This document shows positions 57,771 through 64,000 of a stretch of DNA of 64,000 nucleotides, piece after piece. The first letter of the stretch is position 1. Every line of letters starts with the position of its first letter. Position numbers and translations under genes: made by a program. The DNA is from an uncultured SAR86 cluster bacterium (GTDB taxonomy: Bacteria; Pseudomonadota; Gammaproteobacteria; Magnimaribacterales; AG-339-G14): positions 62,001 through 126,000 of the forward strand of contig CACEOL010000001.1 of NCBI GenBank assembly GCA_902561325.1, read 5' to 3'. The notes beneath the pieces were generated by a model. That model saw only the letters and a list, made by a program, of their open reading frames with translations. It did not search any database and had not been told where the DNA came from.

Positions 57771-58589
57771 TTATTTCCACTTCGCTGAAGGCGGCATAGA
57801 CATTAAGATAGCTTCTGTAGATCCTCCTGTTTTTAAACCAAACAAAGTACCCCTATCCCAAATCAAATTGAATTCGACATAGCGTCCTCTTTTGATTAGT
57901 TGTTGTTCTTTTTCTTCTTCAGTCCAGTCTAAGTCTTTTTTGTTAGATACAGTTTCTTTAATAATATTCAGAGTGGTTGAACCAAGCTCTTTTACAAAAT
58001 CAAAATCGTCTTCCCAGTTTCCGGTATTCAAATGATCAAAAAAAATGCCGCCAACTCCTCTGGGTTCATCTCGGTGTGCAAGATAGAAATATTCGTCACA
58101 ATTTTTTTTAAAATCCGAGTAATATTTATCGTCTGATTTATCACACGCTTCTTTTAATTTGGCGTGAAAAAGTTCGGTTTCTATATCGTCTGGAATTGAT
58201 GGAGTCATATCTGTTCCACCTCCAAACCAATTTTCACCAGTAGATAAAAATCTCGTATTGAAATGAAAAGCCGGCACCTTGGGTGATTGCATATGAGCAA
58301 CCAAACTGATTCCAGAAGCCCAATACTTAGCAGATTTTTCTGTTCCTTTGATTTGAGATTTAAAATCATCAGAAAATTCACCCGCAACAGTTGAAATATT
58401 TACCCCAACCTTTTCAAACACCTCGCCTTTTAGAATGCTTATTTCGCCACCGCCAGAACCTTTATGATTCCATTTTTTTCTTTCAAACTTTCCGCCATCT
58501 AATTCTTCAAAGGCAGCGCAAAAATTATCTCTCAAAGATCTAAACCATTGAGATGCTAAATCTTTTTTTTCATCTAAACTGCTGGTCAT
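57771..58589 (-). CDS. hemF: Oxygen-dependent coproporphyrinogen III oxidase
   Basis: GGGEISILKGEVFEKVGVNIS, PAFHFNTRFLSTGENWFGGGTDMTPSIP, HRDEPRGVGGIFFDHL, RGRYVEFNLIWDRGTLFGLKTGGSTEAILMSMPP. Confidence 0.96.
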   Translation of the reverse strand: MTSSLDEKKDLASQWFRSLRDNFCAAFEELDGGKFERKKWNHKGSGGGEISILKGEVFEKVGVNISTVAGEFSDDFKSQIKGTEKSAKYWASGISLVAHMQSPKVPAFHFNTRFLSTGENWFGGGTDMTPSIPDDIETELFHAKLKEACDKSDDKYYSDFKKNCDEYFYLAHRDEPRGVGGIFFDHLNTGNWEDDFDFVKELGSTTLNIIKETVSNKKDLDWTEEEKEQQLIKRGRYVEFNLIWDRGTLFGLKTGGSTEAILMSMPPSAKWK

Positions 58590-59602
58590 AGTTGGGATAT
58601 TTTATTTGCAATTAAATTATTGATGGCTTCTACATGCTCGTCATTATCATTTAAGCAAGCTATGTAATGAAAAGCTTCACCTCCAGAATCCAAGAATATT
58701 TCTTTATTCTCTTCATCGATTTCTTCTATGGTTTCTAAACAATCCATACTAAACCCTGGCGATAAAATTAAGATATTCTTTACTCCCTCTTTGGGTAATT
58801 TTTCCATCAGTTCACTTGTATAGGGTTTTAACCACTCTCTTCCAGCAGCTGCTAATCTCGATTGAAAACTAGTAATGTATTGATTTTCTTCAAGCCCTAA
58901 AGCTTCTGCAACTAAGCGAGAAGTCTTCTTACAAAAACAATGGTAAGGGTCTCCTTCTTCAAAATATTTTTTTGGAATGCCGTGATAAGAAAAAACTACC
59001 TTGTCCTGTTTTCCATAAAATTCATGAGTTTTAATTGTGTTAGCTAATGAATTTATATACTCAGAATTGTCATGGTAGCCGCTCACAAAATGCAAACTAG
59101 GAACCCATCTCCATCTTGAAAGAATTGCGCTCACCTTATCGAATATTGTTGCAGCAGTTACTGCAGAATATTGGGGAAACAAAGGTAGGAGTAGAATTTT
59201 ACGACAATTTTTCTCCTTCAAATTCAATAAAGCTTTTTCAAGGCTTGGATTTCCATAGCGCATGGCTAATTCAAATTCTATAGATTCATAATTTTCATTC
59301 AGGTTTTTTATCTTGCTTAAAAATCTCTTTGAGTAAACCAGCAACGGCGAGCCTTCTTCAAGCCATACTGATTTATAAAGTGCTGCTGATTTTCTAGGTC
59401 TAAAAGGCAAAATAAAGAGATTAAGTACCAACCACCAGATTATTTTTGGTACTTCTATGACTCTCGTATCTGATAAAAATTCTCTAAGGTATTTTCTTAC
59501 ATCTTTTGTAGAGTAACTATCTGGCGAACCAAGATTACAGATAATTACACCAACTTTTTGTTTATCTTCGTGAGAAAAATTCTCTTCTCCTAAAAAACTC
59601 AT
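58586..59602 (-). CDS. hemH: Ferrochelatase
   Basis: VGVIICNLGSPDS, FLSDTRVIEVPKIIWWLVL, VVFSYHGIPKKYFEEGDPYHCFCKKT, TSFQSRLAAAGREWLKPY. Confidence 0.96.
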   Translation of the reverse strand: MSFLGEENFSHEDKQKVGVIICNLGSPDSYSTKDVRKYLREFLSDTRVIEVPKIIWWLVLNLFILPFRPRKSAALYKSVWLEEGSPLLVYSKRFLSKIKNLNENYESIEFELAMRYGNPSLEKALLNLKEKNCRKILLLPLFPQYSAVTAATIFDKVSAILSRWRWVPSLHFVSGYHDNSEYINSLANTIKTHEFYGKQDKVVFSYHGIPKKYFEEGDPYHCFCKKTSRLVAEALGLEENQYITSFQSRLAAAGREWLKPYTSELMEKLPKEGVKNILILSPGFSMDCLETIEEIDEENKEIFLDSGGEAFHYIACLNDNDEHVEAINNLIANKISQL

Positions 59603-60618
59603 AAATAAGACCTTACTTTTTTTACAAAATGTTTAACATTTTCTTGGGGTGTGGTCTTTATAACACCATGGCCTAAACCACATACCCATCCTTTTCTATC
59701 CTCTATTGAAAGAGAGGAAATATCTTCTAAAAACAAATTTAAAGCTTTATCGAATTCGTTGAAATCCTGAGTAATGATTTTTTCACTGAAATTACCTTGG
59801 ATGAATCCATCTTTCCTTTTTGCAAAAATATCTTGAATGCTGACATTTGAATCTACCCCAATTCCTGCAAAAGGAACTTCGAAGCTATCAGATGCATCAA
59901 AGATATCATCATAAGAAACGCCATCTTTTGCATAGTAACCAACTTGATTTGGAAAAGACTTTACCAACTCACTTAAAATTTTATTGAGGTAAATAGATAA
60001 ATCATCTTTAGCAAGCTGGTGAGCACAAGAATCAAAAATCATTACCACTTCAGCTCCAGCCTGCAATTGCAAAGAAATATTTTTATGTAAAAGAGGAAAG
60101 ATATACTCTTCCAAAATTGCCCATTGGTATCCCTCAATTTTTTCTAGCTTGTCTAATTTGTTAGTCGCTGAAGCAAAAGATAACAATGTCCATGGTCCGC
60201 CAATAAAGCCAATCATGGACTTATCTTCTGGAAGCAGTTCCATCGTTCTTTCTATTGCCTCCCCTTGGAATTCCAAAGAAGCAATGGGATTTTTATTGAT
60301 AAGAATTCTAGAGGCATTTTCCTCAGATAGATGTTCTTTAAATATTGGGCCAGGATCGTAAATCAAATCCATGCCCAAAGACTCCAAAGGAAAAAGAATA
60401 TCGCTGAATAAAATAGCTACATCAAAATCAAATTCTTCTATCGGACCCAAAGCAGTTTGTGCTGACAAGGCTGGATTTTTACAAAGTTCAACGAAGGAGT
60501 GAGATTTCTTAAGATTTTGATAATGATTATGATATCTGCCAGCTTGACGCATAAACCATATTGGCGGAATTTCCTGAGGAACCCGATTCAAAGCATTTTG
60601 AAACCTGGTGTTACGCAT
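59599..60618 (-). CDS. hemE: Uroporphyrinogen decarboxylase
   Basis: IPPIWFMRQAGRYHNHY, AILFSDILFPLESLGMDL, GFIGGPWTLLSF, FAGIGVDSNVS; likely start Met at 60618. Confidence 0.96.
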   Translation of the reverse strand: MRNTRFQNALNRVPQEIPPIWFMRQAGRYHNHYQNLKKSHSFVELCKNPALSAQTALGPIEEFDFDVAILFSDILFPLESLGMDLIYDPGPIFKEHLSEENASRILINKNPIASLEFQGEAIERTMELLPEDKSMIGFIGGPWTLLSFASATNKLDKLEKIEGYQWAILEEYIFPLLHKNISLQLQAGAEVVMIFDSCAHQLAKDDLSIYLNKILSELVKSFPNQVGYYAKDGVSYDDIFDASDSFEVPFAGIGVDSNVSIQDIFAKRKDGFIQGNFSEKIITQDFNEFDKALNLFLEDISSLSIEDRKGWVCGLGHGVIKTTPQENVKHFVKKVRSYL

Positions 60619-60626
60619 ATAAGAAA

Positions 60627-61622
60627 TTATAGATTTTTTGCTATCTCTTTTGCGGCATAAGTTAAGATGCAATCCGCACCAGCTCTCTTAAATGAAAGAA
60701 GCGATTCAAATATTACTTCCTCACTGAGCCAGTTTTTTTCAACTGCTGCCTTCAACATAGCGTATTCACCGCTTACTTGATAAACAAAGGTTGGCATTTG
60801 AAATTTCTCTTTAACTGCCTTTACTACGTCAAGATAAGGCATACCTGGTTTTACCATAACAATGTCAGCTCCTTCATTTATATCCAAAGCTACTTCATGC
60901 AGAGCTTCATTAATATTTGCTATAGCCATTTGATAAGTATCTTTTGTTTTATTCCCAAAAAATTTTGCAGATTCTACTGCTTCTTTAAAAGGACCATAAA
61001 ATTTTGAACTGTATTTTGCTGAGTAAGCTAGGATTATAGTATTTTTATAATCCTTTTCTTCTAAGATTTTTCTTATAGAGCCAATTCTGCCGTCCATCAT
61101 GTCAGATGGGGCAATGATGTCAGTTCCTGCTTGAGCTAACTTTAAAGCTTGATCTTCCAGAACTTTAAGTGTCTCATCGTTATCAACATCACCGTCTGAA
61201 TTTAATACGCCATCATGACCATGAGTTGTATAAGGATCTAAAGCTACGTCAGCAATAACTAGAATTTCCGGAAAATTTTGTTTTATTTTTTTTATGACAT
61301 TATTAAGAAAATTATTTTCATTTACTGCCTCGAAACCTTTCTCGTCTTTCTTGTCTTCATCGATCACAGGAAAAATTGCTACCGCTTTGATACCTAAACT
61401 GACAAGCTCTTCGATTTCTTTGAGAATACTAGTTTCTGAGTGTCTAAAAATTCCAACTAGAGATTCTATTTCTTCTTTTTCTTTTATGGATTCCTTAACA
61501 AAAATTGGTTGAATTAAATCATCAGTGGACAATTTATTTTCTGCCACAAGATCTCTAATCGATTTATTCGATCTCAATCTTCTGAGTCTAGAAAGAGGAT
61601 ATTTTCTTTTAAAATTTGCCAT
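60627..61622 (-). CDS. hemB: Delta-aminolevulinic acid dehydratase (LDPYTTHGHDG, non-Cys metal site)
   Basis: RLRRLRSNKSIRDLV, VIADVALDPYTTHGHDGVL, APSDMMDGRIGSIR, MVKPGMPYLDVV, YQVSGEYAMLKAA. Confidence 0.96.
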   Translation of the reverse strand: MANFKRKYPLSRLRRLRSNKSIRDLVAENKLSTDDLIQPIFVKESIKEKEEIESLVGIFRHSETSILKEIEELVSLGIKAVAIFPVIDEDKKDEKGFEAVNENNFLNNVIKKIKQNFPEILVIADVALDPYTTHGHDGVLNSDGDVDNDETLKVLEDQALKLAQAGTDIIAPSDMMDGRIGSIRKILEEKDYKNTIILAYSAKYSSKFYGPFKEAVESAKFFGNKTKDTYQMAIANINEALHEVALDINEGADIVMVKPGMPYLDVVKAVKEKFQMPTFVYQVSGEYAMLKAAVEKNWLSEEVIFESLLSFKRAGADCILTYAAKEIAKNL

Positions 61623-61644: not shown

Positions 61645-63153
61645 TTACTTTGCTTCGTTTACTTTTTCCAGCCAGTCTTCATAGTTTAAAAAAGGCTTTA
61701 TTTTATTGGGATATAGTTTGTCTAACTCATCAAAAGTTTTGCCCAAACCACATGAATGTTCTGCATTTTCAATGCTAGGAAATCTTTTTAAAGCTTCTTT
61801 AAAAGAGCTGATAGACATCCAATAAAAATGAGAATACAGAGTTAAATCTTCTATATCTGTTTCAGGAACTAATTTATAAGTTGCAAGTAGTTTTTTATCT
61901 TTAGATTGTGAATCGACATGAGAAACCAAAAACCAATTTAATTTTTTATGTAATGAGCTGGGTTGAGATTGTTCTTCTCCTAAACTGTCTGAAGTTCCGT
62001 TTACCCATATTCCCTTCTTAGCTAATTTAAACCAGTTTTCTATTCCGCTTGTCCAAACGACATTGGATAAATCGATTGACGTACCTTTTTCTATTGAACT
62101 TGCTCTAGATATATATAATCCAGAATTTTTCAATATCTCTAATTCTTTTATCCCCTCATTGATTATTGATCGAGAAAATAATTTGAAATCTTTTTTTAAT
62201 TTTGGATAAAAATCTTTTATGGGATTCTCAAATCTTGATAATTCTTCTTTAAATGGTAAAAAAGACCTATTATCAATGAGTTCGTTATCCGGGGTTAAGC
62301 CTTTCTCGGTAATAATTTTTCCAAGAGGATGATTTTCTATACTTACTCCAATTTTTTGATGACAGCCTCCGCCGTATTTTTTGAGTTTCTCTCTCTCATC
62401 TTCTACATTTTTAAATACATCTAAATCATTGATTTCACTAAGTAATTTAATAACTTTTTTATTACCCGATTTTACCTCAATGGCCAATGCTCCCTGACCA
62501 GGAGCACAAGGATTTTGAGAGCAAGGAATCACCATCCACAAAAATTCGTCTAAGTCTTTTTTAAAGGAATCTAATTCATTGGAAATTTCTCCTTTGGGTG
62601 ATAGCAACCGATCTAAAGCAGCTTTTGCTATTACTAAGCCATCTGCATTTGAGTTTTTGAGTTTCTGAACTCTTGTAAGAATATTTCCCCTAATGTCACT
62701 AAAGGTGAGGGAGTTTGTTTTAAAAGGAAATGCTTTTGTTAAAAAGGATGACAGATTTTCTTGTCTTCTAGGAGATGAAGTAAAGATTTCAATTTTTTTC
62801 TTTTTGAGTGAGTCGTTTTTAAATATCAAAACATCTCTTAAATCTGCTCTTTTTATTGTTGCAGCTACTTCCGTTCCTTCTTCAAGATCAACTGGTAAAT
62901 CTTTCCAGGAATGAACAGCAATATCGGCATTGTCAGATAATAATTCTTCTCTAATATCCGAAGTAAAGACACCCATTTCAGGCATTTTATGTAATGGAGT
63001 AGTTAAATCTATATCGCCTGATGTATCTTTGGTTTTAAAGTTTATTTTGATTTCAGGAAATCTTTTTTTAATTACTTCAGAAACCTCTGTAGCTTGAATT
63101 TTAGCTAATACACTTTTTCTTGAAATGATAGTTAACATATTCATTATAACCAA
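61645..63153 (-). CDS. hemC: Divergent hydroxymethylbilane synthase with ~190-aa C-terminal extension, possibly a HemD-like domain
   Basis: HMBS features: ISRKSVLAKIQATEV, DIAVHSWKDLPVDLEEGTE, TSSPRRQENL, DIRGNILTRVQKL, PGQGALAIEV, GGGCHQKIGV. The C-terminal part VVWTSGIENWFKLAKKGIWVNGTSDSLGEEQ...FYWMSISSFKEAL...HSCGLGKTFDEL is beyond normal HMBS length. Confidence 0.85.
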   Translation of the reverse strand: MVIMNMLTIISRKSVLAKIQATEVSEVIKKRFPEIKINFKTKDTSGDIDLTTPLHKMPEMGVFTSDIREELLSDNADIAVHSWKDLPVDLEEGTEVAATIKRADLRDVLIFKNDSLKKKKIEIFTSSPRRQENLSSFLTKAFPFKTNSLTFSDIRGNILTRVQKLKNSNADGLVIAKAALDRLLSPKGEISNELDSFKKDLDEFLWMVIPCSQNPCAPGQGALAIEVKSGNKKVIKLLSEINDLDVFKNVEDEREKLKKYGGGCHQKIGVSIENHPLGKIITEKGLTPDNELIDNRSFLPFKEELSRFENPIKDFYPKLKKDFKLFSRSIINEGIKELEILKNSGLYISRASSIEKGTSIDLSNVVWTSGIENWFKLAKKGIWVNGTSDSLGEEQSQPSSLHKKLNWFLVSHVDSQSKDKKLLATYKLVPETDIEDLTLYSHFYWMSISSFKEALKRFPSIENAEHSCGLGKTFDELDKLYPNKIKPFLNYEDWLEKVNEAK

Positions 63154-63254: not shown

Positions 63255-64000
63255 ATGAACTACAAAAAATATTTTTCTGATGAACTTACTTCTTTAAAGT
63301 CACAAGGTTTGTACAGAAAATTTAGAGAAATAAATAGAGATAAGAAACATTTCCCGAAAGCAACGGAAAGATTTGAAGGTGCTGAAAGAGCTGTAGAAGT
63401 TTGGTGCAGTAATGACTACCTAAATTTAAGTCAGCACCCAGAAGTAATCCAAAAATCTATCGAAGTCATCAAAGAATTAGGCACTGGTTCTGGAGGGACA
63501 AGAAACATTTCAGGAACTTCTTCTTACCATGCTGATTTAGAAAAGGAATTAGCAAACTTACATAACAAAGAATCAAGTCTTATTTTTCCTTCTGCCTATA
63601 CAGCTAATCAATCTTCCCTTTGGACTTTATGTAAAAAGCTTGAAGGTATTGAAGTCTTTTCTGATGAACTTAATCATGCCTCAATGATTCAGGGTATTAA
63701 AAATGCCAACGTACCTTGTCATATTTTTCGCCATAATGATGTTGGTCATTTAAGAAAACTTTTAAATACATCAAATGCCAGCGTACCCAAGTTGATAGTT
63801 TTAGAATCTCTTTATTCGATGGAGGGTCTAAGATCTCCTCTAAAACAAATTGTTTCCTTAGCTAAAGAATTCAATGCTATAACTTATCTTGATGAGGTTC
63901 ATTCAGTTGGACTTTATGGTTTAGAAGGTAGAGGCATTGCGGAGGAGCAAGATGTTTCTGGTGAAATAGATATTATAAATGGAACCCTTTCTAAAGCTTT
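63255..64000 (+). CDS. hemA: 5-aminolevulinate synthase (C4/Shemin pathway), truncated by window end
   Basis: Manual translation MNYKKYFSDELTSLKSQGLYRKFREINRDKKHFPKATERFEGAERAVEVWCSNDYLNLSQHPEVI...GTGSGGTRNISGTSSYHADLEKELANLHNKESSLIFPSAYTANQ...LDEVHSVGLYG...IDIINGTLSKA. GGTRNISGT and IDIINGTL are ALAS hallmarks. Not in the ORF track because no stop lies in the window. Confidence 0.93.
   Translation, partial: MNYKKYFSDELTSLKSQGLYRKFREINRDKKHFPKATERFEGAERAVEVWCSNDYLNLSQHPEVIQKSIEVIKELGTGSGGTRNISGTSSYHADLEKELANLHNKESSLIFPSAYTANQSSLWTLCKKLEGIEVFSDELNHASMIQGIKNANVPCHIFRHNDVGHLRKLLNTSNASVPKLIVLESLYSMEGLRSPLKQIVSLAKEFNAITYLDEVHSVGLYGLEGRGIAEEQDVSGEIDIINGTLSKA

What the first reader, a model, noticed from the sequence alone, without database searches (positions are those of the whole stretch)
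61645..63153. Unusual long HemC that may contain the missing uroporphyrinogen III synthase
No stand-alone hemD is visible in an otherwise complete cluster. The hemC product is ~500 aa, versus about 310 aa normally, and its core is divergent (HSWKDLP instead of HS(M/L)KDVP; SSPRRQ; GGGCHQKIG around the cofactor cysteine). The extension carries WTSGIENWFKLAKKGIWVNG and YWMSISSFKEAL...CGLGKTFDEL, loosely reminiscent of HemD (TSxxxxxxF... GxxTxxxL). It could be a fused, degenerate HemD of the kind seen in some non-gammaproteobacterial HemC lineages.
Basis: partly seen in the sequence, partly recalled or inferred. Interest (0 to 1): 0.62.

Follow-up and report, generated by a model that had tools for sequence, protein, structure and literature searches.

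The report
Heme enzyme with hidden second enzyme
In the abundant ocean bacteria called SAR86, the heme-pathway enzyme HemC carries an extra domain that sequence searches do not recognise but whose predicted shape is that of the next enzyme (HemD, which no SAR86 genome with the long HemC otherwise has), so one protein most likely does two consecutive steps.

Summary
The ORF at 61645-63153(-) (502 aa; likely 499 from the ATG at 63144) is a real HemC: its core exceeds the curated cut-off and has every catalytic residue, including the cofactor cysteine. A ~185-residue tail follows. The tail matches nothing in Pfam, NCBIfam or PDB sequences, but its AlphaFold2 model (pLDDT 88) finds uroporphyrinogen-III synthase (UROS) as the top eight Foldseek hits among 350,542 PDB chains. 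All 37 SAR86-order genomes with the long HemC lack a HEM4/HemD match; all 14 with a ~300-aa HemC have HemD. The long form recurs in a second gammaproteobacterial order and, inside an identically ordered heme operon, in a complete 1.2-Mb genome of another class. All long HemC cores form one clade (100/98): one origin, then horizontal spread. Best explanation: a bifunctional HemC-HemD fusion with a compact, sequence-cryptic UROS domain. HemC-HemD fusions are known (Leptospira), so this is a new variant. UROS activity is inferred, not shown. Side finding: 18 of 20 long HemCs outside SAR86 (G908 aside) lack the cofactor cysteine yet keep the other eight catalytic residues checked.

The parts
61645..63153 (-). 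long hemC ORF (hemC-hemD-like fusion), 502 aa from TTG; more likely 499 aa from ATG at 63144
   Evidence: ORF list and sequence; conserved full length in 37 SAR86-order genomes
62254..63144 (-). hydroxymethylbilane synthase part, about residues 4-300 (three HMBS domains), with R12, S14, K84, D85, R129, R130, R155, R161 and cofactor Cys264
   Evidence: TIGR00212 and PF01379 above cut-offs; HMBS structures top Foldseek hits over ~300 columns, TMt 0.67-0.80; residues invariant
61645..62184 (-). C-terminal UROS-like domain, about residues 323-502, two alpha/beta halves; invariant Y426, W367, G386, H466, G471
   Evidence: AF2 pLDDT 87.7; top eight PDB structure matches all UROS; no sequence-family match; invariants
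60627..61622 (-). hemB (porphobilinogen synthase), immediately downstream of hemC
   Evidence: NF006762 473.5 bits, cut-off 297
59599..60672 (-). hemE (uroporphyrinogen decarboxylase), the enzyme that uses uroporphyrinogen III
   Evidence: TIGR01464 206 bits, full length, below the 303-bit cut-off
58586..59602 (-). hemH (ferrochelatase)
   Evidence: TIGR00109 297 bits, cut-off 124.6
57771..58589 (-). hemF (oxygen-dependent coproporphyrinogen oxidase)
   Evidence: NF003727 363.8 bits, cut-off 297
63255..63998 (+). 5-aminolevulinate synthase gene, divergent from hemC, cut by the window end
   Evidence: TIGR01821 347 bits, cut-off 338.6

Best explanation
The gene encodes a bifunctional enzyme. 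The N-terminal ~300 residues are a hydroxymethylbilane synthase (HemC) that builds hydroxymethylbilane from four porphobilinogens on a dipyrromethane primer held by Cys264. The C-terminal ~180 residues are a compact uroporphyrinogen-III synthase (HemD function) that closes the bilane with inversion of ring D, handing uroporphyrinogen III to HemE encoded two genes downstream. The tail has the UROS fold but has diverged beyond recognition by sequence profiles. The fusion arose once and spread horizontally, replacing the separate hemC-hemD pair. Shown here: the HemC part and its active-site residues, the predicted UROS fold, the mutual exclusion with HemD, the single HemC-core clade. Inferred: UROS catalysis, and any channelling of the unstable bilane between domains.
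For: (1) Unbiased structure search: extension model pLDDT 87.7, pTM 0.76; Foldseek over 350,542 PDB chains gives UROS as ranks 1-8 and 10 (best 3mw8, E 9.6e-5, prob 1.00; 3p9z TMq 0.59), with the first non-UROS hit at prob 0.18. (2) Mutual exclusion in the SAR86 order: 37 of 37 long-HemC genomes have no HEM4 over cut-off, 14 of 14 short-HemC genomes do, usually adjacent; the 10 genomes with no HemC hit also have no HEM4 over cut-off. (3) Replication: 22 of 147 genomes of another gammaproteobacterial order carry the extension. 17 of those lack HEM4; in the other five the HEM4 protein is an apparent exported paralogue (two read in detail) or lies on one contig with a second canonical hemC, a likely contaminant. 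All 13 tested genomes of that order lacking both extension and HEM4 also lack HemC. (4) G908, a complete genome of another class, has the same ALAS|hemC*-hemB-hemE-hemH-hemF order, a 492-aa HemC with the extension, and no HemD by profile search of all six frames. (5) HemC cores of all long forms are one clade, 100/98. (6) The pathway needs uroporphyrinogen III: hemE, hemF and hemH are in the same cluster. (7) Tyr426 is invariant in 28 of 28 sequences and aligns with the Tyr of the HemD vYxR strand in the profile comparison; a conserved active-site Tyr is the one residue implicated in UROS (PMC7242693).
Against: No significant sequence similarity to HemD: Pfam and PDB profile searches empty, hhalign probability only 0.6-3.8%, so homology rests on a predicted fold. 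Global TM-scores are modest (0.37-0.59 by query length). No activity data. The UROS literature warns that sequence diverges strongly and that no essential residue is established (PMC7242693), so conservation cannot prove catalysis. A claimed bifunctional HMBS in Plasmodium failed the hemD complementation test (PMC8698207). Mutual exclusion is phylogenetically clustered, so the counts are not independent events.
Confidence: 0.9

Rival explanations
1. The tail is a relic or structural UROS-fold domain without catalytic activity, and an unrelated, still unidentified protein supplies UROS activity.
For: No sequence match to HemD; UROS analogues could escape profile searches.
Against: The tail is retained in three separate taxonomic groups exactly where no HemD is found, with invariant positions across distant members; a dead domain would be expected to erode, above all in streamlined 1.2-Mb genomes.
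Confidence: 0.06
2. A canonical hemD exists elsewhere in these genomes but is missed by assembly gaps or by HMM sensitivity, and the tail has another role.
For: The window's assembly is 87% complete; HemD evolves fast.
Against: None of 37 long-HemC genomes has one, including single-contig G016 and G040 and the complete G908. A profile of SAR86-order HemD finds divergent HemDs in relatives but nothing credible in 13 f1/f2 genomes. The weak hits read in detail were UvrB, a nucleotide-sugar epimerase-like protein and CarB-like.
Confidence: 0.03
3. These bacteria make uroporphyrinogen I spontaneously and do not need UROS.
For: Hydroxymethylbilane cyclises spontaneously to uroporphyrinogen I (general knowledge).
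Against: hemE, hemF and hemH are kept together with hemC, and coproporphyrinogen oxidase needs the III isomer (general knowledge).
Confidence: 0.01

Closest known systems
Leptospira interrogans HemC-HemD fusion (Guegan et al. 2003, as cited in PMC8698207)
   Same: HMBS and UROS activity in one polypeptide; no separate hemD needed
   Different: [quoted passage not shown] here the UROS part is undetectable by Pfam, NCBIfam or PDB sequence profiles, is only ~180 aa, and belongs to a proteobacterial clade. The Leptospira sequence was not fetched, so common origin was not tested.
Canonical hemC + hemD pair of SAR86-order families f3/f4 (rsmD-hemC-hemD-rho)
   Same: Same two activities in the same order; hemD adjacent to hemC
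   Different: Two genes, ~300 and ~217 aa, HEM4 detectable, different genomic place, HemC cores outside the long-HemC clade
Plasmodium falciparum HMBS, once claimed to be bifunctional (PMC8698207)
   Same: Suggested to house UROS activity in an organism without a known hemD
   Different: It has no UROS-like domain and failed to complement a hemD mutant; the SAR86 protein has an added UROS-fold domain

Membership tests
Hydroxymethylbilane synthase (HemC, TIGR00212/PF01379) | Curated profile score above cut-off | tested here: met
   TIGR00212 193 vs 164 bits; PF01379 171.8 vs 22.1 bits
Hydroxymethylbilane synthase (HemC, TIGR00212/PF01379) | Catalytic Asp and substrate-binding Arg/Lys/Ser | tested here: met
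   R12, S14, K84, D85, R129, R130, R155, R161 invariant in 28 aligned sequences
Hydroxymethylbilane synthase (HemC, TIGR00212/PF01379) | Invariant Cys that anchors the dipyrromethane cofactor | tested here: met
   GGGC, C264 (C261 in the numbering), invariant in all 27 rows of A3; lost in 18 of 20 non-SAR86 long HemCs
Hydroxymethylbilane synthase (HemC, TIGR00212/PF01379) | Three-domain HMBS fold | tested here: met
   Full-length model, top 32 PDB matches all HMBS over ~300 columns
Uroporphyrinogen-III synthase (HemD, PF02602 HEM4) | HEM4 profile match | tested here: not met
   No HEM4 hit in any of 31 extensions at E<=10; own HemD HMM finds none of the extensions. By sequence it cannot be filed in PF02602
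Uroporphyrinogen-III synthase (HemD, PF02602 HEM4) | Two-domain alpha/beta UROS fold | tested here: met
   AF2 pLDDT 87.7; UROS are Foldseek ranks 1-8 and 10, best E 9.6e-5; predicted model, not a solved structure
Uroporphyrinogen-III synthase (HemD, PF02602 HEM4) | Conserved active-site tyrosine | tested here: inconclusive
   Y426 invariant and aligned with the HemD vYxR Tyr, but only in a sub-threshold profile alignment
Uroporphyrinogen-III synthase (HemD, PF02602 HEM4) | UROS activity (type III isomer formed) | not testable with these tools
   Needs complementation or HPLC assay
HemC-HemD fusion (Leptospira type) | Same domain order and common origin of the fusion | not tested
   Fusion described in PMC8698207; Leptospira sequence not compared

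The most novel reading that the evidence does not exclude
In the second gammaproteobacterial group the fused HMBS has lost the cysteine that anchors the dipyrromethane primer (18 of 20 proteins) while keeping the other eight catalytic residues checked, and it is the only HMBS found in those genomes tested (one carries a second, probably contaminant, copy). These fused enzymes may therefore make uroporphyrinogen III without a covalent primer, or with one anchored elsewhere, perhaps made possible by the attached UROS domain.
Probability: 0.2. Interest if true: 0.85.

Novelty: new variant of a known kind. Interest (0 to 1): 0.62.

Why it matters
It explains how SAR86, one of the most abundant marine bacterial groups, can make heme without a recognisable hemD, and corrects a gap that automatic annotation would report as a broken pathway or heme auxotrophy. 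It supplies a new, very divergent, ~180-aa UROS lineage for an enzyme whose essential residues are still unknown, so conserved positions can be compared across unrelated-looking sequences. It also gives a natural two-step fusion for testing channelling of the unstable bilane. The cysteine-less sister group challenges the rule that HMBS needs an invariant cofactor cysteine.

Tried and rejected
Sequence-only proof of HemD homology failed: Pfam and PDB profile searches and hhalign against SAR86-order HemD and a 37-row HemD profile (best probability 3.8%, though above the reversed and shuffled controls at 0-0.3%). A stand-alone HemD elsewhere was sought with PF02602 and with a SAR86-order HemD profile. 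The best leftovers were read by eye: UvrB (L001), a nucleotide-sugar epimerase-like protein (L115) and CarB-like (L141 of G908). The five second-order genomes that have both the extension and HEM4 were followed up: L099 and L106 are HEM4 proteins with an N-terminal signal-like stretch beside TonB-receptor genes; L092 is a contig with a full canonical hemC plus cobA-hemD, probably contamination; L101 and L109 were not read in detail. The idea that a shifted cysteine (CPxAPGQG or HxCGxGKT) replaces the lost cofactor Cys was checked: no cysteine column is present in all members. A paper search for SAR86 with uroporphyrinogen found no relevant report.

Full report
What is there. The window lies in a SAR86 genome: the nearest loci with public names (50-98% identical HemC) are SAR86 cluster or unnamed Gammaproteobacteria assemblies. 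The ORF at 61645-63153(-) is intact. Its reading from TTG gives 502 aa; an ATG at 63144 with AAGGA upstream is the likelier start. Downstream on the same strand come hemB, hemE, hemH and hemF, and a 5-aminolevulinate synthase gene diverges from it. Residues up to about 300 are HMBS by curated profiles and by fold, with the active-site residues and cofactor cysteine in place.

The tail. About 180-200 residues follow. They are conserved at full length in 37 SAR86-order genomes with 28 invariant positions among 31 sequences. No Pfam family, no PDB sequence and no HemD profile matches them significantly. AlphaFold2 with the family alignment gives a confident model (pLDDT 87.7), and the full-length model is better still (90.2, pTM 0.90). 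Foldseek against all PDB chains returns uroporphyrinogen-III synthases as the first eight hits, with a sharp drop to unrelated proteins. The sequence then makes sense as two alpha/beta halves: NVVWTSGIENW..WVNGTSDSLGE and HFYWMSISSF..HSCGLGKTFDEL, each resembling the HemD pattern TS-x-x-x-x-x-F..G-x-x-T-x-x-x-L; this reading of the pattern is inference.

Genomic logic. In the SAR86 order, families f1 and f2 have the long HemC and no HEM4 (0 of 37). Families f3 and f4 have a ~300-aa HemC and a HEM4 gene (14 of 14), adjacent in an rsmD-hemC-hemD-rho arrangement where read. The 10 genomes with no HemC hit also have no HEM4 over cut-off. The extension profile found a second gammaproteobacterial order: 22 of 147 genomes carry it, always attached to HemC where the frame is complete. 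Seventeen lack HEM4. Of the other five, two were read and hold HEM4 proteins that look exported, and one holds a foreign-looking contig. All 13 tested genomes without HEM4 and without the extension lack HemC altogether. A proteobacterial survey of 399 genomes added G908, from another class: 1.21 Mb in one contig, with the operon ALAS|hemC*-hemB-hemE-hemH-hemF in exactly the window's order and no HemD in a six-frame profile search.

Origin. A maximum-likelihood tree of HemC cores puts all 41 long forms in one clade (100/98) apart from 29 short forms, including those of the SAR86 order's other families. A single fusion event followed by horizontal transfer, at least into or out of SAR86 with its operon, is the simplest reading. 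Direction was not tested, and long branches (G908, G513) limit detail.

Mechanism. HMBS releases hydroxymethylbilane, and UROS closes it with inversion of ring D (PMC7242693). The downstream enzymes encoded here need the III isomer (general knowledge). The fused tail most likely performs that step. Tyr426, invariant, is the best candidate for the conserved UROS tyrosine; the alignment supporting this is below significance. Channelling is plausible but untested.

Known and new. HemC-HemD fusions are known from Leptospira (PMC8698207), so the principle is not new. New are the proteobacterial clade, the sequence-cryptic compact UROS domain, and its explanation of the missing hemD in SAR86. In the non-SAR86 gammaproteobacterial members, 18 of 20 have lost the cofactor cysteine that is described as invariant in HMBS (PMC3949521), while R12, S14, K84, D85, R129, R130, R155 and R161 stay invariant. 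In 21 of the 22 genomes this is the only hemC found (one, G545, only as fragments); G492 has a second, probably contaminant copy. In the tree the two members that keep the cysteine (L080, L081) are sister to the group of 16 that lack it or, for one truncated row, were not scored; L070 is a separate loss. That is an open lead.

Limits. The fold is predicted, not solved. Activity is inferred.

Noticed in passing
L069-L089 (genomes G425, G438, G484, G513 and others): Long HemCs outside SAR86 lack the dipyrromethane-anchoring cysteine in 18 of 20 cases although the other eight catalytic residues checked are invariant and no other HemC was found (except one probable contaminant). L080 and L081 keep it.
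   Followed up: partly
L113/L116 (G908, complete 1.21-Mb genome of another proteobacterial class): Same heme operon order as the SAR86 window (ALAS divergent, hemC*-hemB-hemE-hemH-hemF) with 34-56% protein identity: apparent horizontal transfer of a whole heme operon.
   Followed up: partly
L099:1318-2241, L106:1255-2235: HEM4 (UROS-like) proteins with an N-terminal signal-like stretch next to TonB-dependent receptor genes; possibly exported UROS-fold proteins of unknown role (L101 and L109 look similar but were not read in detail).
   Followed up: no
Genomes G042 (single contig), G436, G449, G482 and others: No HemC and no HEM4 in assemblies of 91-95% completeness: candidates for heme auxotrophy.
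   Followed up: no
window 59599-60672: HemE scores 206 bits, well below its 303-bit curated cut-off, although full length: a divergent uroporphyrinogen decarboxylase.
   Followed up: no
window 63255-63998: A gammaproteobacterium with 5-aminolevulinate synthase (the glycine route) at its heme locus rather than the usual glutamyl-tRNA route (usual route from general knowledge).
   Followed up: no
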